From positions 1-20,886 of the IMG/VR virus record IMGVR_UViG_3300036715_000146: 20,886 nucleotides of DNA; one strand, given 5' to 3'. The notes under the pieces were generated by a model, which had not been told where the DNA came from, did no database searches, and was given only the letters and a program-made list of their open reading frames with translations. A program made the translations under genes and the position numbers. This DNA is from a virus. This document shows, one piece after another, positions 1,674 through 20,552 of this stretch (within the stretch, counting starts at the first letter, position 1; every line of letters starts with the position of its first letter).

Positions 1674-2135
1674 CTATTCTTGTTCATGATGGATGATTTC
1701 AACTTCGCTGAATTTATATCCGTCCTTGCCGTATCGTTGCGCCAGCCAGATGGGTTCGGGTAATGCGTGGACACCTTCGTCTTTGCAAATATGATGAGCC
1801 TTACATAGTAATCGGCCATTGACGTTCATGTCGTCCACAAAGGTGTAAGGATTTGACTCATCAAAACTTCCCCACCCGAAAATAGGAAAATCCTTGCGAA
1901 TCTGCGAACCCTCTGACCAGTCTATCATTTCGGCAAAACTTCGCTCTATTGGGTAATGGTGAGCTTCCATGCTTCCAACTTCAGATTCAGGACATCCGCA
2001 TATCCAGCACACTTTATCACGTTCTATCAATTGCTTTCGCGTTTTGATAAATAATGGAGTTGCTACCCTGTCGCTATGCTCTGGTATATCAACTGCAACG
2101 GCCAGCGTTTCCTTTTCAATATGCGAGTCTGTCAT
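1674..2135 (-). CDS. HNH-like Cys/His protein in lysis cassette
   Basis: A 153-residue protein with the layout of an HNH or zinc-finger nuclease fold: Cys-x-x-Cys at 43-46, Glu-Ala-His-His at 57-60, Asn at 106 and Leu-Cys-Lys-x-His-His at 110-115, so two Cys pairs could hold zinc and His/Asn could form the active site. The middle is unusually rich in Trp, Phe and Asp. The frame is open to a TTG at 2150, but the ATG at 2135, with GAG six bases upstream, is the better start. Cys/His proteins of this type occur in the lysis region of other phages and are often left unnamed; nuclease activity is not shown. An HNH enzyme usually helps terminase near the packaging genes, so its place between endolysin and holin is odd. 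Confidence 0.7.
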   Translation of the reverse strand: MTDSHIEKETLAVAVDIPEHSDRVATPLFIKTRKQLIERDKVCWICGCPESEVGSMEAHHYPIERSFAEMIDWSEGSQIRKDFPIFGWGSFDESNPYTFVDDMNVNGRLLCKAHHICKDEGVHALPEPIWLAQRYGKDGYKFSEVEIIHHEQE

Positions 2136-2142
2136 TTTATGC

Positions 2143-2586
2143 TCATACAAGATTATTACTTTTCATCACTGCGATTAGTTTATCCGCGTAATTTTGGTCA
2201 GTAGCATATCCAGCCGCCGCAACACGCCGCACGAACTCGACAGGGTCAGATGTTTCCAGTGCGTGCTTATAACGTGGATTGCCATGAAAGAACTTAGCAT
2301 GGTCTAGCATACACTCGCCCCAGTCAGCATACTTGCGCCACTTTGCAACGACTATTACATCCTGACCACTTAGGTGCTCTTTAGTTGGCAATGCCAGAGT
2401 TGCGCCGTGCCAAGATGCGTCCGCCTTTACACCAAACAGATTAAACCCTTTAGTCGCTAGTACAGAGCTACCCCAAGCCGATTCCAGCGCACCCTGAGCA
2501 AGCGTAAACTCATGAGGTATCCCCGCTGCTTTCTCACACCCAAGCGCGGCAGGGGTTAGCTGGGTTAGGAAGTCGGTCTTGGTCAT
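2143..2586 (-). CDS. Endolysin, GH73/FlgJ-like N-acetylglucosaminidase
   Basis: A 147-residue peptidoglycan hydrolase of the glucosaminidase (GH73, FlgJ C-domain) type, expected to cut the glycan chain of the cell wall at lysis. The catalytic motif Ala-Leu-Glu-Ser-Ala-Trp-Gly places the general acid at Glu35. It is followed by the family's Asn-Leu-Phe-Gly-Val-Lys segment (about 49-54), a Trp-x-x-Tyr-x-x-Trp strand, and a C-terminal Gly-Tyr-Ala-Thr-Asp-x-x-Tyr-Ala-x-Lys (about 126-136). There is no signal peptide or transmembrane segment and no separate wall-binding domain, so a holin is needed for export. It starts with an ATGA overlap on the glycoside hydrolase gene (2583-2586). Confidence 0.9.
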   Translation of the reverse strand: MTKTDFLTQLTPAALGCEKAAGIPHEFTLAQGALESAWGSSVLATKGFNLFGVKADASWHGATLALPTKEHLSGQDVIVVAKWRKYADWGECMLDHAKFFHGNPRYKHALETSDPVEFVRRVAAAGYATDQNYADKLIAVMKSNNLV

Positions 2587-3890
2587 GTGGAAATAACCAT
2601 TTCTCCATTCCCAGTTAACGAGTATCCCTGGTTTCCGTATAAAAATCCGGCAGAATATAGCATCTTCCCATTATATTGATTCGCTATTTGGTCAATACAA
2701 TTAGAAATTTCAGGTACTGTTGATGGATTCCCACAGAAATTATCTTCATGATTATAGAAAATACATGACTTTACTCCACCAGCGGCAAGCAACAACGCTA
2801 CCCGTTTTAACATCCCAGCACGCGCTATCGGCTGGCTTGCTAGAGTAGTGTAAAATTGCCACCCTGTCGTATACCCAACCTCAGTTCCGTAAATATCCCA
2901 TTGGACACCGAGTCCAGACTTTACCGAGGAAAGTTGATTTAACCGTGTCTGTAAACTGCGATACACTCCTGCGTTATCAACTGCAACCGAATCAAAATCA
3001 TAGAAATGATACGACAGTGCATCCGCCCAGTTTTTACCAAAACCTGCTGCGCCGTCTGAAGCTGAACCCCATGCAGTTATGTGGTCGTATTCAACGCCAA
3101 TGCTGCCATACCCATCTACAAAATCTGGTGACATAACCATAACTGACGGATTGATAGCTTTCGCAGTCTGATAGACATTCTTGCTTTGCGCCGCAAGTTG
3201 TGCAGCAGTTCCATGAAAGTAATATCGAGTCCTGAAAGTCGTATTGGTTATATAGTTACTAGCATCTTTACGGATTTGCTCTCCAACAATTAATGGCAAG
3301 CTTAATGGACTGCTTAACCGAATATCAATATTGTTTGTACCTATTGCCGTGATTGTGCCAGTAACTCCCGATGTTGCCCCAGTTACGGTATCATTAACAT
3401 ATAAAGTGCCTGTAATAGTGCCATTGCTATTAACAATAGGTGCATCTAGTTTCGGCTCATTCCAAGGACTAAGATACTTTATTTTAGAACCATATCGATT
3501 CATCAAAGCCGTTACAAAAGCATTTAATGCAACAGGGTCAGGAACAGCACAACTTCCAACCCTGCCGTTGTTATAATCGGCTACAGAAGCCCAGCTCCCT
3601 GTCGCGTGAAATGTCGGGCAAGATGTAATCTGATAGTAAAAGTCATGCCCTAATGATGTATTAAAATGAGATATAATATTATCCAGTGACGTCCAGTTAT
3701 AAACCCCATTAGATGTTTCTATATTCCACCAATCAACTCCAGAATCAATTGACCTAACCGTGCCATAGTTATACTGCGGAGTTGCTGATGCACCTGTTCT
3801 AAAGTGCATGCCCAACCACTGGCTAGGCAACTGCATAACACCTGAATATAGTCTACTAACAAAATTCCCCACCGAAAAAGATGGGGTCAC
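2583..3890 (-). CDS. Clan-A (GH39/GH5-like) glycoside hydrolase with inserted domain
   Basis: A 435-residue glycosidase of the (beta/alpha)8 clan-A type. Residues 44-70 match the barrel start of GH39-like enzymes (Arg-x-x-Asp-Ser-Gly-Val-x-Trp, then Gly-Val-Tyr-Asn-Trp-x-x-Leu-Asp). Pro-Trp-Asn-Glu-Pro at 142-146 gives the strand-4 Asn-Glu pair with Glu145 as acid/base, and Thr-Glu-Val-Gly at 336-339 gives the likely strand-7 nucleophile, Glu337. About 55 residues between them (156-208) are a beta-rich insert not belonging to the barrel. There is no signal peptide and no recognisable virion-attachment domain. Placement directly after the LamG-like gene (ATGA overlap) and before the endolysin suggests an enzyme against host capsule, exopolysaccharide or biofilm glycan; the substrate cannot be told. 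A hydrolase acting in cell lysis is the alternative. Confidence 0.8.
   Translation of the reverse strand: MTPSFSVGNFVSRLYSGVMQLPSQWLGMHFRTGASATPQYNYGTVRSIDSGVDWWNIETSNGVYNWTSLDNIISHFNTSLGHDFYYQITSCPTFHATGSWASVADYNNGRVGSCAVPDPVALNAFVTALMNRYGSKIKYLSPWNEPKLDAPIVNSNGTITGTLYVNDTVTGATSGVTGTITAIGTNNIDIRLSSPLSLPLIVGEQIRKDASNYITNTTFRTRYYFHGTAAQLAAQSKNVYQTAKAINPSVMVMSPDFVDGYGSIGVEYDHITAWGSASDGAAGFGKNWADALSYHFYDFDSVAVDNAGVYRSLQTRLNQLSSVKSGLGVQWDIYGTEVGYTTGWQFYTTLASQPIARAGMLKRVALLLAAGGVKSCIFYNHEDNFCGNPSTVPEISNCIDQIANQYNGKMLYSAGFLYGNQGYSLTGNGEMVIST
3267..3425 (-). other. Beta-rich domain inserted in the glycoside hydrolase
   Basis: Residues about 156-208 of the glycosidase read as a small Gly/Thr/Ile-rich beta domain, with a Val-Thr-Gly-Ala-Thr-Ser-Gly-Val-Thr-Gly-Thr core and a closing Val-Gly-Glu-Gln-Ile. 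This resembles a small repeat-like domain seen in many phage virion proteins (Gly-Ala-Thr-Ser-Gly-Ala-Thr-Gly pattern, then Gly-Glu). It interrupts the barrel about 10 residues after the catalytic Asn144-Glu145 pair. Boundaries are approximate. Confidence 0.55.
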
Positions 3891-4645
3891 ATAAAAACCG
3901 CATCTGCTGTGCTGATTCCTGTCCTGGTTTTACTTGCTGAAATTTTTACTATTTCATCAAGATTTATAGGCAGTGCAGAGTTAGGAAACTTCAACATCTG
4001 CAAGCCTTTTATCTCTAAAGCAACGCCGTTACCGGTCATTGTTTGACCAACGTAAAGCGCGTTTGTGATTGCGTTGTATGTTGCAGCAGTAAATGCCGAG
4101 GCGTAGGCTGTGTCTAAAATGCCATCACGATATAGACGGACTTCTTTAGTTACCCCGTTAAGAGAAAGGGCACAGTGATGGTCTGTTCCGTCAAAGAATG
4201 TGCCTATGCTATCAGCCATACCTGAAAAGAATGAATCAGCATTTATACGAACGCGCATTTTCCCAGTTGTTATAGCAACTAGAAAAAAACCATAATTACC
4301 ACTAGCAGCAGTTGCATCACAATTTCCTATGAAAGTGTCATTTGCAGCAGGAAGTGCTTTATTAACAGTAAAAAGTATAAGTACACTATCTTTATTTAGA
4401 TTCCACGAACTTTTACTATTTGGTATTTGTACATTGTGTCCAGCACCTGCACTTATCGTCAAATATCCTGCATTAGACCACGGCTCACTTAATGCGACTG
4501 ACCCGCCGTATATGGGAGCGACTAGGTTGGATGAGTAATCTAAAGGAATCACTGTATTGTTTCCAGCCTGATTTAATGGAAAGTTGAATAGGCTGTATTT
4601 ATTTGGGGACGCGATTGTTGATTGCCACACATTTTCATTAGCCAT
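3887..4645 (-). CDS. LamG/concanavalin A-like virion or adsorption protein
   Basis: A 252-residue protein beginning Met-Ala-Asn-Glu-Asn-Val-Trp. From about residue 75 to 230 it reads as a LamG or concanavalin A-like jelly roll: a strand ending Leu-Ile-Leu-Phe-Thr-Val, then Asn-Tyr-Gly-Phe-Phe, a Lys-Met-Arg-Val-Arg-Ile strand, the central Asp-Gly-Thr-Asp-His-His-Cys-Ala-Leu-Ser segment, and Val-Arg-Leu-Tyr-Arg-Asp-Gly. Such domains usually bind sugars. The frame is open to 4717, but those 24 residues overlap the previous gene and include out-of-place Cys; the ATG at 4645, two bases after the upstream TAA, is preferred. It is coupled to the glycoside hydrolase by an ATGA overlap, so the two may act on the same surface glycan. 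No catalytic residues are evident. Confidence 0.75.
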   Translation of the reverse strand: MANENVWQSTIASPNKYSLFNFPLNQAGNNTVIPLDYSSNLVAPIYGGSVALSEPWSNAGYLTISAGAGHNVQIPNSKSSWNLNKDSVLILFTVNKALPAANDTFIGNCDATAASGNYGFFLVAITTGKMRVRINADSFFSGMADSIGTFFDGTDHHCALSLNGVTKEVRLYRDGILDTAYASAFTAATYNAITNALYVGQTMTGNGVALEIKGLQMLKFPNSALPINLDEIVKISASKTRTGISTADAVFM

Positions 4646-4647
4646 GA

Positions 4648-4941
4648 TTAACCACACACCGTAAAGTAAGAAGTAGCCGACACTCCAGCAGAGCGCGTGA
4701 CACGGATATGCGAGCAACCAGCGTCTAGCCTCACGCCTTGGCTTGTCGTCGCAGTAAGCAGCGGCGTGTCATACGTTAGCCCACCGTCAAACGACTGGTC
4801 TAGCACGAGGGTATCTCCTGCGGTGACATATAGCCTGATGATTGCTGGGAGTGGTGCGCCTGCCATGGGTGCAACTACGGGTGTCGCATTGAGTAAGAAA
4901 GCTGGCTGTATTACCAGCCCTATCATGGTATGTGTTGTCAT
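4648..4941 (-). CDS. Small beta-rich phage protein, function unknown
   Basis: A 97-residue protein with alternating hydrophobic and Thr/Ser residues typical of a small beta-sandwich. A Leu-Asp-Gln-Ser-Phe-Asp-Gly-Gly segment (about 57-64) and a C-terminal Ile-Arg-Val-Thr-Arg-Ser-Ala-Gly repeat a pattern I associate with small virion proteins coded near tail fibres. There is no signal peptide. The ATG has GGGG about 7 bases upstream. It sits between a coiled-coil membrane protein and the LamG-like protein, and may decorate the fibre or help the LamG protein assemble; that is inference from position only. Confidence 0.7.
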   Translation of the reverse strand: MTTHTMIGLVIQPAFLLNATPVVAPMAGAPLPAIIRLYVTAGDTLVLDQSFDGGLTYDTPLLTATTSQGVRLDAGCSHIRVTRSAGVSATSYFTVCG

Positions 4942-5251: not shown

Positions 5252-5737
5252 TCACCAAACTATTTTAGTCACGTCTGAAACCGTAGTCGCTGCGCGTATT
5301 GCAGACTTCTGCGTCTGTTTATGCACAAACAGAGTATTGACGTTAGCCACTCCAGTTGCGAATACTCCTTGGAGTTGTAACAGCGTCATCGTTACTGGCT
5401 GATTGTTTATATCATACCAGGCAAAGTTAGCTGGCACTGTGCCGCCCGTTGCGACAATAGATTGCAAGCCCGTAATCGCACGGTTCATCAAATCTTGGCT
5501 GTCTTTGTCGGCTTGAAATATCGTGCTCATATATGCGACTGGCTGCTGCATAGTTGTGTCGTATGCGCTGTCTATTAGTGCCAGTTGCGAGGCCTGCGCG
5601 TTAGCCAGCAATTCCGCGCTAGTCAATACAGGCGGAGTGTAAATTGTATATGACGGGTCTATGTCATCACCCGCATAAACGATTACAGGCTCACCCTCTG
5701 GTGTTAAATATGCGAGTGTTTCTGTTGCTATTGTCAT
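5252..5737 (-). CDS. DUF4376-like tail fibre-associated protein
   Basis: A 161-residue protein. The N-terminal 35 residues resemble the short fibre-binding start of tail fibre assembly proteins, and the C-terminal half (about 65-160) has the helical DUF4376-type layout: Asp-Lys-Asp-Ser-Gln-Asp near 77-82, a Thr-x-x-Trp-like Phe-Ala-Trp-Tyr-Asp segment (105-109), and a helical end with Val-x-x-x-Phe-x-His-Lys-Gln. Such proteins lie directly after fibre genes and are thought to be fibre chaperones or virion-bound accessory proteins. A GTG at 5746 is in frame, but it overlaps the AAGGTG ribosome site serving the ATG at 5737, so the ATG is the better start. Confidence 0.75.
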   Translation of the reverse strand: MTIATETLAYLTPEGEPVIVYAGDDIDPSYTIYTPPVLTSAELLANAQASQLALIDSAYDTTMQQPVAYMSTIFQADKDSQDLMNRAITGLQSIVATGGTVPANFAWYDINNQPVTMTLLQLQGVFATGVANVNTLFVHKQTQKSAIRAATTVSDVTKIVW

Positions 5738-5747
5738 TTTATTCACC

Positions 5748-7268: not shown

Positions 7269-7910
7269 TTATAAAAAATCCTTAAAAAACGTACCATTTC
7301 CGAAAGTGGCTGCATTGCCTGATTCCGCGAATCCTATTGTTGTGCTGTCAACTTGCAAAATGGAAAACGTAACGCCAGTTGGCGGAGTAATAACGCCATT
7401 TTTGAGTATTGTAACCTCGAACGGCTGCAATGCAAATTCTATATTTATGCGGGCATTCATTCCGCCCGTGTCTGTGACGTAAGCCGCGCCGCGATTAGGG
7501 AATAAATTAGTTAAAACAGTATTATATGTGCTAATTGATGCACTCGACACATTCATATATGACTTGGCTAAAATCAACAATCTAAATGCATCATCAGATA
7601 ACGCATAATTAGCCGTTGCGATAGTGCCAGAATAAAACGGCGCTTGTCCAAATGTATCAGATATTGTGCCTGCTTCGTTGAATCCGATGTATGTACTATT
7701 ACCAGTTATTGTAACAACTCGATTAACGCCGACTATCCTACCCCAAACGTCTAGCCCATACCCTGTCGCGGTTGTAATGTTCCACACGTCATTATAAAAA
7801 TTATCTATATCTGTAGATGGATCAATTGACGAGTTGTAAGCGTCAACCAGCGCCAGCATGACTGGGCTGTTTGCATACTTTGCTTGCAATGTCTGTGTAG
7901 TAGATAACAT
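7269..7910 (-). CDS. Baseplate protein, DUF2612 family
   Basis: A 213-residue baseplate protein of the DUF2612 type, the functional counterpart of P2 gpI or Mu gp48: it sits at the tip of the baseplate wedge and holds the fibre. The N-terminal region has the family pattern Ala-Asn-Ser-Pro around residue 14, then Phe-Tyr-Asn-Asp-Val-Trp-Asn-Ile (about 38-45) and Gly-Tyr-Gly-Leu-Asp-Val-Trp-Gly-Arg-Ile-Val-Gly (about 50-61). A short Ile-Gly-Phe-x-Glu-x-Gly pattern occurs twice (near 75 and 192), an internal repeat. It begins with a TAATG overlap on the J gene and ends next to the fibre start. Confidence 0.85.
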   Translation of the reverse strand: MLSTTQTLQAKYANSPVMLALVDAYNSSIDPSTDIDNFYNDVWNITTATGYGLDVWGRIVGVNRVVTITGNSTYIGFNEAGTISDTFGQAPFYSGTIATANYALSDDAFRLLILAKSYMNVSSASISTYNTVLTNLFPNRGAAYVTDTGGMNARINIEFALQPFEVTILKNGVITPPTGVTFSILQVDSTTIGFAESGNAATFGNGTFFKDFL

Positions 7911-9304
7911 TAGATAAACAATACCGAAATATTGGATGATGATACAGTCGGCTCTTGATCAATCCGCATTAAAACAGAAAACATATTTGCCGCGTCTATC
8001 CCTAATTGTATTTCAATCGGACTCGCCCACGCACCTAGATTTATAATCGGCGCGTAAAAACGGCTGGCTAATATCTGCGAACCAATACGGGCACGTGTGC
8101 CGCCGTTTTGTCCTGCAAATGCCGCTATTATAGCGTTTTGTATTTGCGTTATTGAATCACTCGGCACGCTTGAATTATTAGTCATCGTCACGCTAAACAA
8201 AATCGGCGTTGGTGTTGGCACTTGATAAGTAACTGTATATTGTGGGTACGGATATGAATACTGTTGGCTTTGATCGTAAACGATAACAGAAGTATTTCCG
8301 TTGTAATTACAGCCAGGGCTTTTTTTATTCCAAATTGCCTGAGCCACATCGCTAGAAACTCCACCAGATACTGCTGCATATATGCTATTAGGTATTAGTC
8401 TAACGCCGCCGAATGCAGCCGTCATTGCGGTTGATGCGACTGTTTGGCTTATGGATATAGTCCAGGTTGCGCCGCTTCCGCCCGTTATATATGTGCCTGA
8501 TGTTATGCCTGTGCCTGATAGCATGTATCCGATTGATATAGTTCCATATATTGCCGATGCGGTTAATATTGTTCCGCTGATTGCGCCAGTGAACGATGCC
8601 CCTGTCGTGATTCCAGTGTCATTACTAATAACGGTCGCGTCCAGCACATTAGCAACATTAAACACTGAACCTAATATAGCTTGGTTAGTGCCTTGTGCGT
8701 TTGCTGCCACCGAATTAGATCGACGATATTCAAAGTCGGATCGGCTTTCAACATCGCGGCCTAAAACTCCAGCGGATAAATTTGTTATCGAATCCCATCC
8801 CGCTATGGATTGATAAATCTTACTCAAATATCCAACAGGGCAAGATATAGCGCCAGTTGTTACACCCGCGAATTGTAGCGTGGTATTGCCAGCCGCAGGA
8901 ATAGTCACAGATGCAGTTGATGTGTATATGTTGCCAGCTTGGTCAACCGCTTGCGCCCCAATCGGGATAATAGTACCTTCAAGCCCAGTAACTGTCGCTA
9001 CTACGGCCGTGCTTGCCGCTGCGATTCGTGTTAGATAATAAATTCTGCCAATCGCGTCTTGCATTCGTCCATCTGCATACGCTGGGTCAACGCCGTTCGC
9101 TAAAGCTAAAAGTTTATCGTTTTTATCCCCAACAATCGCAGTCAATGATTGTGATAACTGCCCTTGAGGCGTAGTAAGAGATGGATTGAGATTTCCACCA
9201 AACGCGGCATTAAAATCAGCCAATGCGCCTGTTAAAATATCAGATTCCGACGGCGCAATGAATCCGCTATTTGTAAATGTCGTTGATGGTATGTTTGTAC
9301 TCAT
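7910..9304 (-). CDS. Baseplate J-like wedge protein with inserted domain
   Basis: A 464-residue baseplate wedge protein of the gpJ/Mu gp47 family. The N-terminus has Phe-x-x-Pro-Ser-Glu-Ser-Asp-Ile and the Thr-Pro-Gln-Gly-Gln-Leu segment (45-50), then Asp-Pro-x-x-Ala-Asp-Gly (73-79) and Gly-Arg-Asp-Val-Glu-Ser-Arg-Ser-Asp-Phe-Glu-Tyr-Arg-Arg (182-195). The family's Val-x-x-Val-x-Ser-Asn-Asp-Thr strand (about 222-230) normally runs straight into an Ile-Tyr-Ala-Ala-Val-Ser-Gly-Gly strand (308-315); here about 60 residues (237-296) separate them. The J protein joins with the gp25-like and DUF2612 proteins to form the wedge that triggers sheath contraction. It follows the gp25-like gene by 10 bases. 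Confidence 0.9.
   Translation of the reverse strand: MSTNIPSTTFTNSGFIAPSESDILTGALADFNAAFGGNLNPSLTTPQGQLSQSLTAIVGDKNDKLLALANGVDPAYADGRMQDAIGRIYYLTRIAAASTAVVATVTGLEGTIIPIGAQAVDQAGNIYTSTASVTIPAAGNTTLQFAGVTTGAISCPVGYLSKIYQSIAGWDSITNLSAGVLGRDVESRSDFEYRRSNSVAANAQGTNQAILGSVFNVANVLDATVISNDTGITTGASFTGAISGTILTASAIYGTISIGYMLSGTGITSGTYITGGSGATWTISISQTVASTAMTAAFGGVRLIPNSIYAAVSGGVSSDVAQAIWNKKSPGCNYNGNTSVIVYDQSQQYSYPYPQYTVTYQVPTPTPILFSVTMTNNSSVPSDSITQIQNAIIAAFAGQNGGTRARIGSQILASRFYAPIINLGAWASPIEIQLGIDAANMFSVLMRIDQEPTVSSSNISVLFI
8417..8596 (-). other. Beta-rich accessory domain inserted in baseplate J
   Basis: Residues 237-296 of the J protein start Ser-Phe-Thr-Gly-Ala-Ile-Ser-Gly-Thr and end Ser-Gln-Thr-Val-Ala-Ser-Thr-Ala-Met-Thr. 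This is a Gly/Thr/Ile-rich module I recognise as a recurrent insert in phage structural proteins. It matches, position by position in its first third and in its Ser-Gln-Thr end, the insert of the cement protein at 20169-20357. Boundaries are approximate. Confidence 0.75.
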
Positions 9305-14380: not shown

Positions 14381-14808
14381 TATATAGGCGCTCCAACAAT
14401 ACTATTCCACTTAATACTAAACTTGCGCGGCTGCAATATCTTCTTGCCGTCGGAAAATGCGCTGTAGCCGACTAACACGCCGTTTGTCAGTATGTAGCTA
14501 CGTGATACGCCAGGCTGACGAAGAACTCCAAATGCCTTATATACTTCATTTGTGGCTTCGAGTGCTGCGTACCATGCCTCGAAGAATGTGTTAGATGCAC
14601 TATCTGCCTGCAAAACGATATTCATCGTCTTGATTTGCGGAATGCGGCCTGACGACATAATGCCGTCAACACCCATTACCACTTCAGCCACATCTACAGA
14701 ATCAACTGAGTACGCATCGCCATCACTAAAACCTTGTAATTGCTGAGGCGTAGTATATAAACCCGTTACACCTAGCATTAGTATGCTGTTTGAGCTGGTT
14801 AATGACAT
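14380..14808 (-). CDS. Tail tube protein, DUF3277 family
   Basis: A 142-residue protein of the DUF3277 family, which forms the inner tail tube of these myophages. It has the family layout: Gly-Phe-Ser-Asp-Gly-Asp-Ala-Tyr-Ser (26-34), a strand with Val-x-Met-Gly-x-Asp-Gly-x-Met-Ser-Ser-Gly-Arg-Ile-Pro (44-57), then Leu-Gln-Ala-Asp-Ser-Ala-Ser-Asn (65-72) and a C-terminal Ile-Leu-x-Pro-Arg-Lys-Phe-x-Ile-Lys-Trp. It lies right after the sheath gene with a TAATG overlap at 14808, the expected sheath-tube order. Confidence 0.9.
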   Translation of the reverse strand: MSLTSSNSILMLGVTGLYTTPQQLQGFSDGDAYSVDSVDVAEVVMGVDGIMSSGRIPQIKTMNIVLQADSASNTFFEAWYAALEATNEVYKAFGVLRQPGVSRSYILTNGVLVGYSAFSDGKKILQPRKFSIKWNSIVGAPI

Positions 14809-16304
14809 TATTGAACCTCCACAGAGCCAAGATTAATTTGTTGCACACTACCCGCGTCCATGTACCAGAACGTCATCGGAGGAGTTGTACGATTAGCGCG
14901 AGATTGTGCAGACGCTGGCAAGATTTGCAGATACCATCCTCGAGTAGCTAATATGCCATCAATCGCCAGTCCTGCTGCGTTGTTTACTTCTGCCGCTTGT
15001 AATGAAGATAACGGAACACCTGCACCAATCGCGCCGAAGTTTAACGCCGCGTTAATTGTATCCATACACGCGGCTTCAATTAGCGTATAACCTTGGACAT
15101 TGTACGGAACGGACTTAACGCTAGTTAGTAACAGCATTAAGTTAAGCTGGAATGAGCTATTCATCCAGATTTGGTTAATGAAACTATCAAGCCATTTATA
15201 CTGGCCCGTTACTGAACCGGGATAATAGAAGTTGAAACTTTGGTTAGCTGTTGCGTATGAACCATATCCGTTATATCCGTTGGCTATCAAGTTATTTAAT
15301 TGAGTTTGATTCTGCACGTCGATAATCAAACCAGACTGGCTCTTGAATGCCAGCGTTGAACGGCCGTTATGCTGTGTAAAGTCAATCGAACCAATCGCGC
15401 CACACAAGAAAGCCGCTTTTTCATAAGTCGCGCCGTAAATTGGAACGCATCCAGATGATGCAGTTGATTGTAAGATATAACCTAAGCTGGTCGTTGCTGC
15501 GTTGCTCGACAATGGTGTTACGTCAGTATCCCAAGCAATATAAGCATATCTGTTATTTTGCAGCACGTTCCATGCTTGGAATGCTTGCTTCTGTGTGTTG
15601 CCTGCACCAAAGTCAGGGTCAAACACGGTCATAAACGTAGCCCAGTTGGTCGTTGTGAGTATGAGCGAATTCATGAATGCGGTTGGTGTTGCAATTGCCG
15701 AACCTTGCGACAATACTGCGCCCGTTGCTGTTGTCAGATAAAGGCTTGCCGACAGTGTGCCAGTTGCTTCTGTGATCGTTGCTGTCGCGCCAGTCAGTGT
15801 AGTGGTAAAAGCAAATGCATTGGCTATGCTGTCATACGACACGCTAAACGGTGGGGATGTGAATCCAGCTTGGATTATAGTTGCCGCATTGCTAAAGCTA
15901 GTCGCCGCTGACAAACTAATTGTGCTTGACGTTTTTACTGTGCCGTTGACGGTTAATGTCAAAACACCTGACAGAGCCTGCAACTGCGCCAGCGTCATGC
16001 TACCTAGCGAGCCACCACGAAGGAACGCTGACACTGCCGCAGTTGGGTATTGTGCAAACAGTATCGAGCCTGGCTTAATGTTGGAATTTAGGAAGCCATT
16101 AAAATATAAAGCTGCCGCATTTGATTCCGCTGCGCCTGAGCCGAAATACGTGCTTACAGCGGACGAACTTGGGAATGATAAAACTGAGCCAATTGGCACT
16201 CGGGTTGAGTTTGATAATAGCAATCCTTGCATTACAAGGCCTGAACCGCCTGCGCTTATGACACTAGGCGTGACGGTTACTATGGCGGATGCTGGTATGG
16301 TCAT
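14808..16304 (-). CDS. Contractile tail sheath protein, DUF3383 family
   Basis: A 498-residue sheath protein of the DUF3383 family. The start Met-Thr-Ile-Pro-Ala-Ser-x-Ile-Val is typical, followed by Gly-Leu-Leu-Leu-Ser-Asn and a Val-x-x-Tyr-Phe-Gly-Ser-Gly-Ala-Ala-Glu segment (50-59). Residues about 110-205 form an exposed beta domain ending in Leu-Tyr-Leu-Thr-x-Ala-Thr-Gly-Ala (191-199), which this family normally carries. The core resumes with Trp-Asp-Thr-Asp near 253 and ends Arg-Ala-Asn-Arg-Thr-Thr-Pro-Pro-Met-x-Phe-Trp-Tyr-Met, the arm that links sheath subunits. The ATG has a strong GAGGAG site in the 70-base gap after the neck gene, in line with the high expression a sheath needs. Confidence 0.93.
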   Translation of the reverse strand: MTIPASAIVTVTPSVISAGGSGLVMQGLLLSNSTRVPIGSVLSFPSSSAVSTYFGSGAAESNAAALYFNGFLNSNIKPGSILFAQYPTAAVSAFLRGGSLGSMTLAQLQALSGVLTLTVNGTVKTSSTISLSAATSFSNAATIIQAGFTSPPFSVSYDSIANAFAFTTTLTGATATITEATGTLSASLYLTTATGAVLSQGSAIATPTAFMNSLILTTTNWATFMTVFDPDFGAGNTQKQAFQAWNVLQNNRYAYIAWDTDVTPLSSNAATTSLGYILQSTASSGCVPIYGATYEKAAFLCGAIGSIDFTQHNGRSTLAFKSQSGLIIDVQNQTQLNNLIANGYNGYGSYATANQSFNFYYPGSVTGQYKWLDSFINQIWMNSSFQLNLMLLLTSVKSVPYNVQGYTLIEAACMDTINAALNFGAIGAGVPLSSLQAAEVNNAAGLAIDGILATRGWYLQILPASAQSRANRTTPPMTFWYMDAGSVQQINLGSVEVQ

Positions 16305-19832: not shown

Positions 19833-20552
19833 TTAGTTAGTCAAACGAGCCGCTACTAAGCCCGCTGCGGTTGTTGGATATTGATAAATGACTGAGTTTG
19901 GCAAGAGTGCGTTAGTGCTGCCATAAGCTGCGCCTGGGCGAACTGCGCTCAACTGGCCAGTGATTACGTTATATACAATCACGTCACCAATTGCCGCCGC
20001 TGTTGCGCTTGCGATTACGATAGTGCCCATCGTCAAGAATGAAGACTGCGAGTTATCTGCAACCGCAAGAGTCGGTGTCAATGTACCTGATGTTGTGCCT
20101 GATGTAGCCTTGTCTTTTGGGTTGACCATAACGCCAGCCAGCACTGTGTTAGTTCCGCCTGAACCAGTTGCAGGACCAGACGCGAAAGTCTGTGAAGTTG
20201 CTACGGTATAAGTACCAGTACCGCCAGCGCCAGTTAAGTAACCAGTCACAGCGCAAGGGGTTGTGATGCCCGCTAATGTTTGCCCGACTTGAATAGAACC
20301 CGACGCAACTGCTGTTACTGTCATAGTTGTTCCGCTGATGCTTGCGGTAAATGACGATGCACCTGTACCGATTACACCACCAGATACAGCGATATTGGTG
20401 GATGCAGATTTTGTAAACGCATAGCCAATTACGTTCGACGTTGCGCCGTTTGAGTTGACGATAAGTGAATCCGCCCGCATAGGGCCATCCACAAGTAGTT
20501 CACCTGGAACACCAAAGCCCAGAGTGATATTTACACCAGATTGGAAACTCAT
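19833..20552 (-). CDS. Capsid cement/decoration protein with inserted domain
   Basis: A 239-residue structural cement protein, which binds the outside of the capsid and stabilises it. The family parts are the start (Phe-Gln-Ser-Gly-Val-Asn, then Gly-Phe-Gly-Val-Pro-Gly-Glu-Leu, 12-19), Ala-Gly-Val-Met-Val-Asn-Pro-Lys (139-146) and the end with Gly-Asp-Val-Ile-Val-Tyr (189-194). Between Val-Gly-type strand residues near 60 and the Leu-Ala-Gly strand at 138, about 63 residues (66-128) form an extra beta-rich domain not needed for the core fold. The ATG has AGGAG about 9 bases upstream, inside the end of the DUF2213 gene. Confidence 0.85.
20169..20357 (-). other. Beta-rich accessory domain inserted in cement protein
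   Basis: Residues 66-128 of the cement protein start [10 protein letters not shown] and contain Gly-Ser-Ile-Gln-Val-Gly-Gln-Thr-Leu, then Gly-Thr-Gly-Thr-Tyr-Thr-Val and Ser-Gln-Thr-Phe-Ala-Ser. This is the same module type as in baseplate J (8417-8596). On the cement protein it would project outward from the capsid. Boundaries are approximate. Confidence 0.75.

What the first reader, a model, noticed from the sequence alone, without database searches (positions are those of the whole stretch)
2583..4645. Coupled LamG-like protein and GH39-like glycosidase as a candidate glycan-depolymerising module
A lectin-like jelly-roll gene and a clan-A glycosidase gene overlap by ATGA and lie between fibre genes and the endolysin. 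The enzyme has both expected catalytic Glu residues (145 and 337) but no recognised virion anchor and no signal peptide. Phage depolymerases are mostly beta-helix lyases or hydrolases on fibres; a barrel glycosidase as a separate gene is less usual. GH39-type enzymes such as PslG act on biofilm polysaccharide, so capsule or matrix glycan is a reasonable target.
Basis: partly seen in the sequence, partly recalled or inferred. Interest (0 to 1): 0.6.

Follow-up and report, generated by a model that had tools for sequence, protein, structure and literature searches.

The report
Phage glycosidase with dedicated partner gene
A contractile-tailed phage carries a divergent relative of the biofilm-cutting enzyme PslG, linked to a small beta-rich partner gene, and many other phages turn out to carry the same kind of gene pair, probably to cut through the sugar coat of their hosts.

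Summary
The gene at 2583-3890(-) encodes a clan-A (beta/alpha)8 glycosidase. It has no Pfam, PHROG or PDB hit of its own, but intermediate relatives hit GH39. A 15-row profile finds PslG first (E 1e-20), and PslG also tops the fold search. Glu145 and Glu337 align with PslG's Glu165 and Glu276 and are the only invariant glutamates. The upstream gene (3887-4645) is an orphan: its LamG-type motif is visible but not statistically shown. The overlap is GTGA; the ATGA overlap is the one between the glycosidase and the endolysin.

The wider finding is new here. At least 24 distinct phage or prophage-like loci (90% clusters) carry this enzyme family. Twenty have a partner ORF ending at or overlapping the enzyme start. 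Loci found through the main partner family alone all had the enzyme next (21 of 21). Apart from one outlier the phage copies lack signal peptides; cellular relatives are mostly secreted, some encoded inside exopolysaccharide loci. One partner carries a virion structural domain. I infer an adaptor-plus-enzyme exopolysaccharide depolymerase. The window copy is a deep, long branch with a 73-residue insert beside the acid/base. Virion attachment and substrate remain untested.

The parts
2583..3890 (-). PslG/GH39-like clan-A glycosidase, 435 aa, GTG start, no signal peptide, ends after barrel strand 8 (no C-terminal beta-sandwich)
3456..3458 (-). Codon of Glu145 (WNEP, end of strand 4), predicted general acid/base, aligned with PslG Glu165
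   Evidence: PslG numbering from PMC11912335
2880..2882 (-). Codon of Glu337 (YGTEVG, end of strand 7), predicted nucleophile, aligned with PslG Glu276
   Evidence: PMC11912335
3225..3443 (-). Insert of about 73 residues (150-222) directly after the acid/base, absent at this size from all relatives; weak resemblance to modules of phage structural proteins
   Evidence: phrog_697 E=8e-4; pLDDT<50
3887..4645 (-). Partner gene, 252 aa orphan, probably beta-rich with a LamG/ConA-type motif (DGTDHHCALSLNG...VRLYRDG); fold not shown
3887..3890 (-). GTGA stop/start overlap partner to glycosidase; no Shine-Dalgarno seen before the GTG, so translational coupling likely
2583..2586 (-). ATGA stop/start overlap glycosidase to endolysin
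4648..4941 (-). 97-aa ORF 2 nt upstream of the partner; reciprocal best hit of the 91-aa ORF directly upstream of the partner-enzyme pair in viral contig L109
   Evidence: E=1.5e-4 and 3.4e-4 in 7,519 ORFs
2143..2586 (-). Endolysin, Glucosaminidase PF01832
5748..7268 (-). Tail fibre protein (context)
   Evidence: phrog_12796 E=2e-62
5252..5746 (-). DUF4376 tail-fibre-associated protein (context)
14808..16304 (-). DUF3383 protein, annotated as tail sheath in related phages: contractile-tailed phage (context)

Best explanation
The two genes are a divergent member of a phage two-gene module: a small beta-rich partner that sits on the virion or binds glycan, followed by a PslG-like retaining endo-glycosidase without anchor or signal peptide. 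The enzyme is made late, coupled in translation to its partner, held by the partner on the particle (or released beside it at lysis), and cuts exopolysaccharide or capsule of the host so that particles can reach or leave the cell. Shown here: enzyme family, barrel fold by model, both catalytic glutamates, gene order, missing signal peptide, and the same kind of pair in other phages. Inferred: late expression, virion attachment through the partner, the glycan substrate, the retaining mechanism in this copy, and that the orphan partner in the window plays the role of the partners elsewhere.
For: Enzyme: profile of 15 relatives finds PslG first in the PDB (E 1e-20), PslG is the top fold match (E 2e-8, TM 0.53-0.56), E145/E337 align with PslG E165/E276. 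Module: 20 of 24 non-redundant phage or prophage-like clusters have an ORF of 157-319 aa ending at or overlapping the enzyme start (one, L102, has a truncated partner at its contig edge); scanning by one partner family alone returns 21 loci, all 21 with the enzyme next (most are the same contigs as, five are new). The window enzyme branches with the phage clade that has this partner (93/73 support), and its upstream 97-aa ORF is the reciprocal best hit of the ORF upstream of the pair in L109. Delivery: phage copies lack signal peptides except outlier L123; most cellular relatives have one. Virion link: L105's partner has an N-terminal virion structural domain (phrog_1731 E=3e-14), and pairs lie beside portal/capsid, connector or tail fibre genes. 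Substrate: Thiobacillus and Acidobacteriaceae relatives are inside Wzx/Wzy_C/glycosyltransferase loci. In the 56 nearest related contigs the tail genes are conserved but no homologue of this enzyme or partner was found; two that extend past the fibre carry a beta-helix (weak hit) or collagen-like protein next.
Against: The window partner shows no sequence homology to either partner family, so its membership in the module rests on gene order and the neighbouring ORF. The window enzyme is on a long branch (2.3) whose place is unsure. The window partner carries no recognised virion domain, and only one partner elsewhere does. The pair also touches the endolysin gene, which fits release at lysis as well. 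No activity, proteomics or complex model.
Confidence: 0.55

Rival explanations
1. The enzyme is a soluble matrix-clearing enzyme released at lysis, not a virion part: it belongs to the lysis operon, and helps progeny escape from an exopolysaccharide-embedded colony. The partner is an unrelated small structural or glycan-binding protein.
For: ATGA overlap with the endolysin gene, no signal peptide so that release needs lysis, no anchor on the enzyme itself.
Against: In most other phages the pair is not next to lysis genes but beside portal, capsid, connector or tail fibre genes, and the partner is tightly linked and in L105 fused to a virion domain.
Confidence: 0.22
2. It is an auxiliary metabolic gene for breaking down environmental polysaccharide (plant, algal), as viral GH39 genes have been read in virome surveys.
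For: Viral GH39 has been listed as a carbon-degradation gene in Mariana Trench viromes (PMC8725595).
Against: No signal peptide, so the enzyme would stay in the cytoplasm away from such substrate until lysis; embedded among structural and lysis genes; several of the nearest cellular relatives are exopolysaccharide-locus enzymes.
Confidence: 0.08
3. The window copy is a decaying or repurposed barrel: the insert next to the acid/base and the lost C-terminal beta-sandwich have turned it into a glycan-binding, non-catalytic protein.
For: Long branch, 73-residue insert directly after Glu145, no C-terminal beta-sandwich.
Against: Both catalytic Glu and all other invariant columns (W143, N144, H295, Y297, T336) are kept; Nitrosospira-type phage copies also lack the C-terminal domain.
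Confidence: 0.1

Closest known systems
PslG of Pseudomonas aeruginosa (GH39, endo-beta-glucosidase on Psl; PDB 4zn2, 5bx9, 9g17)
   Same: Barrel fold by model, acid/base and nucleophile Glu in the same places (E145=E165, E337=E276), best profile and fold match; PslG too is encoded in an exopolysaccharide locus, as are L010, L018 and L022
   Different: About 11-12% identity in the fold alignment; no signal peptide; a 73-residue insert after the acid/base; ends after the barrel; phage gene with a partner
Caulobacter phage Cr30 'beta-1,4 xylanase' (AGS80957) and the hypothetical protein before it (AGS80956)
   Same: Same enzyme family (28% over 142 aa plus a second segment), no signal peptide, partner ORF of 303 aa overlapping the start by 1 nt
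   Different: Cr30 partner belongs to another sequence family; its enzyme keeps the C-terminal domain and has no insert
Nitrosospira-type prophage and viral-contig pairs (L012, L015, most of L102-L122, L135, L147, L150)
   Same: Enzyme of the same length class, no C-terminal domain, partner directly before it; nearest clade in the tree
   Different: Partner family not related by sequence to the window's; placed near portal and capsid genes in many
TIM-barrel depolymerase tail proteins of Acinetobacter phages (PMC11823257)
   Same: Barrel fold used for capsule depolymerisation by phages
   Different: There the barrel is a domain of the tail fibre/spike protein itself; relation to this family not tested
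RcGTA detachable tailspike TspA (PMC13420450)
   Same: Precedent for a particle-delivered, releasable biofilm-degrading enzyme
   Different: Beta-helix enzyme with its own anchor, not a barrel held by a separate protein

Membership tests
Glycoside hydrolase family 39 (clan A) | (beta/alpha)8 barrel | tested here: met
   AlphaFold2 model pTM 0.76, most core blocks above 80 pLDDT; PslG and other GH-A enzymes top the PDB fold search
Glycoside hydrolase family 39 (clan A) | Acid/base Glu after strand 4 (WNE) and nucleophile Glu after strand 7 | tested here: met
   E145 and E337 invariant in 15 rows and aligned with PslG E165/E276
Glycoside hydrolase family 39 (clan A) | Sequence match over the curated family cut-off (Pfam PF01229) | tested here: not met
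   No match for the window protein; met by relatives Cr30, Deinococcus plasmid and L008/L022. So: GH39-like, not filed as a GH39 member
Glycoside hydrolase family 39 (clan A) | Retaining hydrolysis of a beta-glycoside | not testable with these tools
   Needs enzyme assay
Phage-borne polysaccharide depolymerase | Part of the virion | tested here: inconclusive
   Only indirect: partner with virion structural domain in L105, structural neighbourhoods, no signal peptide
Phage-borne polysaccharide depolymerase | Cuts host surface polysaccharide | not testable with these tools
   Exopolysaccharide-locus placement of some cellular relatives only
LamG / ConA-like jelly roll (partner 3887-4645) | Match to a Laminin G profile or jelly-roll fold | tested here: inconclusive
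   Laminin_G_2 E=0.2, HHalign P=0.012 on the motif, PF13385 none, structure model unusable
Partner-enzyme two-gene module of phages | GH39-like enzyme without signal peptide, directly preceded by an overlapping or abutting partner ORF | tested here: met
   (beta-rich nature of the window partner judged from sequence only)
Partner-enzyme two-gene module of phages | Partner homologous to one of the partner families | tested here: not met
   window partner unrelated by sequence to both families; only the ORF before it (4648-4941) has a syntenic homologue

The most novel reading that the evidence does not exclude
Phages of several kinds share an undescribed adaptor-plus-enzyme module: a small beta-sandwich adaptor, whose N-terminal part is exchanged to suit head, connector or tail, carries a separately encoded PslG-like glycosidase on the particle, so that even head-mounted depolymerases exist; the window phage has rebuilt the module with a LamG-like adaptor and an extra domain at the active-site rim.
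Probability: 0.35. Interest if true: 0.75.

Novelty: new variant of a known kind. Interest (0 to 1): 0.55.

Why it matters
Well-known phage depolymerases are domains of tail spikes, mostly beta-helices. A recurrent pair in which the enzyme is a separate, PslG-like barrel with a dedicated partner would be another way to arm a phage against exopolysaccharide, seen here in uncultured contigs and prophages and, by our searches, in only one isolated phage, Cr30. It gives a ready test in a laboratory strain: Cr30 infects Caulobacter crescentus, and an exopolysaccharide capsule protects that host from Cr30 (PMC5749776). The family is also a source of exopolysaccharide-cutting enzymes that profile libraries partly miss, as the window protein shows.

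Tried and rejected
Direct searches with the window enzyme in Pfam, PHROGs, NCBIfam, PDB sequences, IMG/VR and GTDB genomes gave no family or relative; only the phage and plasmid tblastn opened the family. Searches for partner relatives found none. AlphaFold2 of the partner failed. The insert: tblastn in phages none; IMG/VR gave two hits, of which L091 lies antisense to a capsid-like gene and is rejected, and L092 lies in a head-region protein with a short 31-residue match, so its origin stays open. A marked foreign origin of the pair by base composition is not supported: G+C 0.42/0.40 against 0.45 for the window, but neighbours range from 0.38 to 0.54. The partner as homologue of the long LamG proteins of these phages: no significant match. 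The 93/73 placement of the window enzyme is kept only as suggestive because of its long branch. The first alignment of partner families had no searchable stretch. Paper searches for a phage GH39 depolymerase found no such report.

Full report
Setting. The window is a 20,886-base virus record of a contractile-tailed phage: a DUF3383 protein annotated as tail sheath in related phages, tape measure with SLT domain, Baseplate_J, fibre, DUF4376, then the genes of the finding, then a glucosaminidase endolysin.

The enzyme. The protein of 2583-3890(-) has no hit in Pfam, PHROGs, NCBIfam or PDB sequences. tblastn finds distant relatives: Caulobacter phage Cr30 'beta-1,4 xylanase', a glycosyl hydrolase next to phage tail genes on the Deinococcus plasmid pDAETH-4, and Eleftheria. 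The first two hit PF01229 Glyco_hydro_39 over its cut-off, Eleftheria just under it (PDB hits of Cr30). A four-row alignment then found 28 loci in bacterial genomes. In a 15-row alignment W143, N144, E145, H295, Y297, T336 and E337 are invariant, and E145 and E337 are the only invariant ones of 8 glutamates. The profile finds PslG first in the PDB (E 1.1e-20), and the printed alignment puts the two glutamates on PslG's WNEP and WSTE motifs, that is E165 and E276 (numbering from PMC11912335; chain index plus 26, counted by me). AlphaFold2 with the alignment gives a barrel, pTM 0.76, most core blocks above 80, with residues 153-222 and the ends below 50; the top three PDB fold matches are PslG, and among viral models the best are an unnamed Caudovirales protein and A0A067XRB1, which I take to be the Cr30 protein by its length of 394. 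The enzyme ends after the eighth strand, without the C-terminal beta domain of the cellular relatives, as do the Nitrosospira-type phage copies.

The insert. About 73 residues (150-222) follow shortly after the acid/base. No relative has it at that size, though Nitrosospira-type and Thiobacillus proteins have short extensions there. It matches phrog_697, a structural protein, weakly (E 8e-4), and a head-region protein in L092 over 31 residues. Its origin is open.

The upstream gene. 3887-4645(-) is an orphan. The motif DGTDHHCALSLNG...VRLYRDG is what a LamG domain shows, and HHalign against four LamG_3 domains aligns exactly there, but only at P 0.012; Laminin_G_2 reaches E 0.2; the structure model is unusable. 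I call it probable, not shown. The overlap with the enzyme is GTGA; the enzyme overlaps the endolysin by ATGA. No Shine-Dalgarno is seen before the GTG, so coupling is likely.

Variable locus. 56 related viral contigs found through the baseplate protein keep the order sheath to fibre where their length allows it, but no homologue of this enzyme or partner was found in them. Behind the fibre, among those that extend so far, L036 has a protein with a weak beta-helix hit and L037 a collagen-like one; others go on to lysis genes or other ORFs. The pair sits at a place where such phages vary.

A wider module. A broader alignment found 32 loci in IMG/VR. With Cr30, the Deinococcus plasmid, the Nitrosospira prophages and the window they form 24 clusters at 90% identity. 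In 20 of them an ORF of 157-319 aa ends at or overlaps the enzyme start (counted by me, including L102, whose partner is cut by the contig edge; L123 excluded because its upstream ORF is of another kind; some enzyme starts are over-extended by the mechanical ORF rule, so the overlap lengths are upper bounds). Two partner families appear: one in the Nitrosospira-type and L105/L111/L117 loci, one in Cr30/L098/L099/L101. Searching IMG/VR with an alignment of the first family alone gave 21 loci, and every one has the enzyme directly behind (L107 and L116 as seen). Most of these are the same contigs as; five are new. The scan uses short conserved motifs and finds relatives of that family only, so distant partners without the enzyme could be missed. 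Partner-like segments of the second family occur in Sphingomonas phage Scott and Caulobacter phage Percy without an annotated GH39-like neighbour, so that family's tie is looser.

Where the modules sit. In Nitrosospira-type loci the pair lies between portal and scaffold/capsid genes; L111 has a major head protein and head closure protein near; L098 is followed by a tail collar fibre and L099 preceded by a fibre-like protein. N-termini of the partners differ between phages while the C-terminal domain is shared; in L105 the N-terminal 130 residues are a virion structural domain (phrog_1731, E 2.8e-14), of which the same contig has a second copy. This suggests an adaptor, but partners of other phages gave no informative family hits.

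Secretion. Cellular relatives mostly start with a hydrophobic segment of signal-peptide type, phage copies do not, except L123 (a simple hydrophobicity scan, not a trained predictor; ORF starts are mechanical). Relatives in Thiobacillus and one Acidobacteriaceae genome lie in loci with flippase, Wzy_C ligase/polymerase and glycosyltransferases, as PslG does in the psl cluster (PMC11912335).

Does the window belong? The enzyme branches next to the 18-row phage clade (93/73) but on a branch of 2.3, so the place is unsure. Its 97-aa ORF at 4648-4941 and the 91-aa ORF before the pair in L109 are reciprocal best hits (E 1.5e-4 and 3.4e-4 among 7,519 ORFs). The partner itself matches neither family. 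Membership therefore rests on the enzyme, gene order, and this neighbour.

Judgement. Enzyme identity about 0.95; exopolysaccharide or capsule as target about 0.75; held on the particle through the partner about 0.55. Known elements: PslG, barrel-type depolymerase domains in four Acinetobacter phage tail proteins (PMC11823257), particle-delivered releasable matrix enzymes (RcGTA TspA, PMC13420450). A search of held papers for phage GH39 depolymerases found none, but the library lacks most subscription journals. So: new variant of a known kind.

Noticed in passing
window 7910-9304 (J protein, residues about 235-300) and 19833-20552 (residues about 64-133): Both carry a 60-70 residue beta-module of the type 'ISGT-LTVTAV-SG-I-VG--I-G' that recurs inside sheath, J, fibre and other structural genes of related phages: a domain that seems to move between virion genes.
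   Followed up: partly
L105:2838-3770 and L105:6544-7122: A partner gene that fuses a virion structural N-domain (phrog_1731) to the partner C-domain, with a second copy of the N-domain in another gene of the same contig.
   Followed up: partly
L038:13684-14994 and L043:14734-15918: Acyltransferase-like genes behind the fibre genes of related phages, possibly for O-antigen conversion; judged by eye from the sequence only.
   Followed up: no
L097:12578-14308, L109:6167-7918, L114:12088-14223, L118:10513-11847: Long proteins with a LamG-type N-terminal domain (PF13385 hit in L096/L097) occur within a few genes to about 12 kb of the partner-enzyme pair in several phages.
   Followed up: partly
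L130:4578-5264 (Sphingomonas phage Scott) and L131:4353-5234 (Caulobacter phage Percy): Proteins with the C-terminal segment of the Cr30-type partner lie next to terminase and lysis genes without an annotated GH39-like enzyme.
   Followed up: partly
window 1674-2150(-): HNH-like endonuclease ORF directly after the endolysin, with a homologue in related phage L038/L066 at 20270; family judged by eye.
   Followed up: no
L042:11649-12203(-): Fragment behind the fibre with a sequence that looks like a beta-propeller glycosidase (VIFEDGVFKMWYCAG), cut off by the contig end.
   Followed up: no
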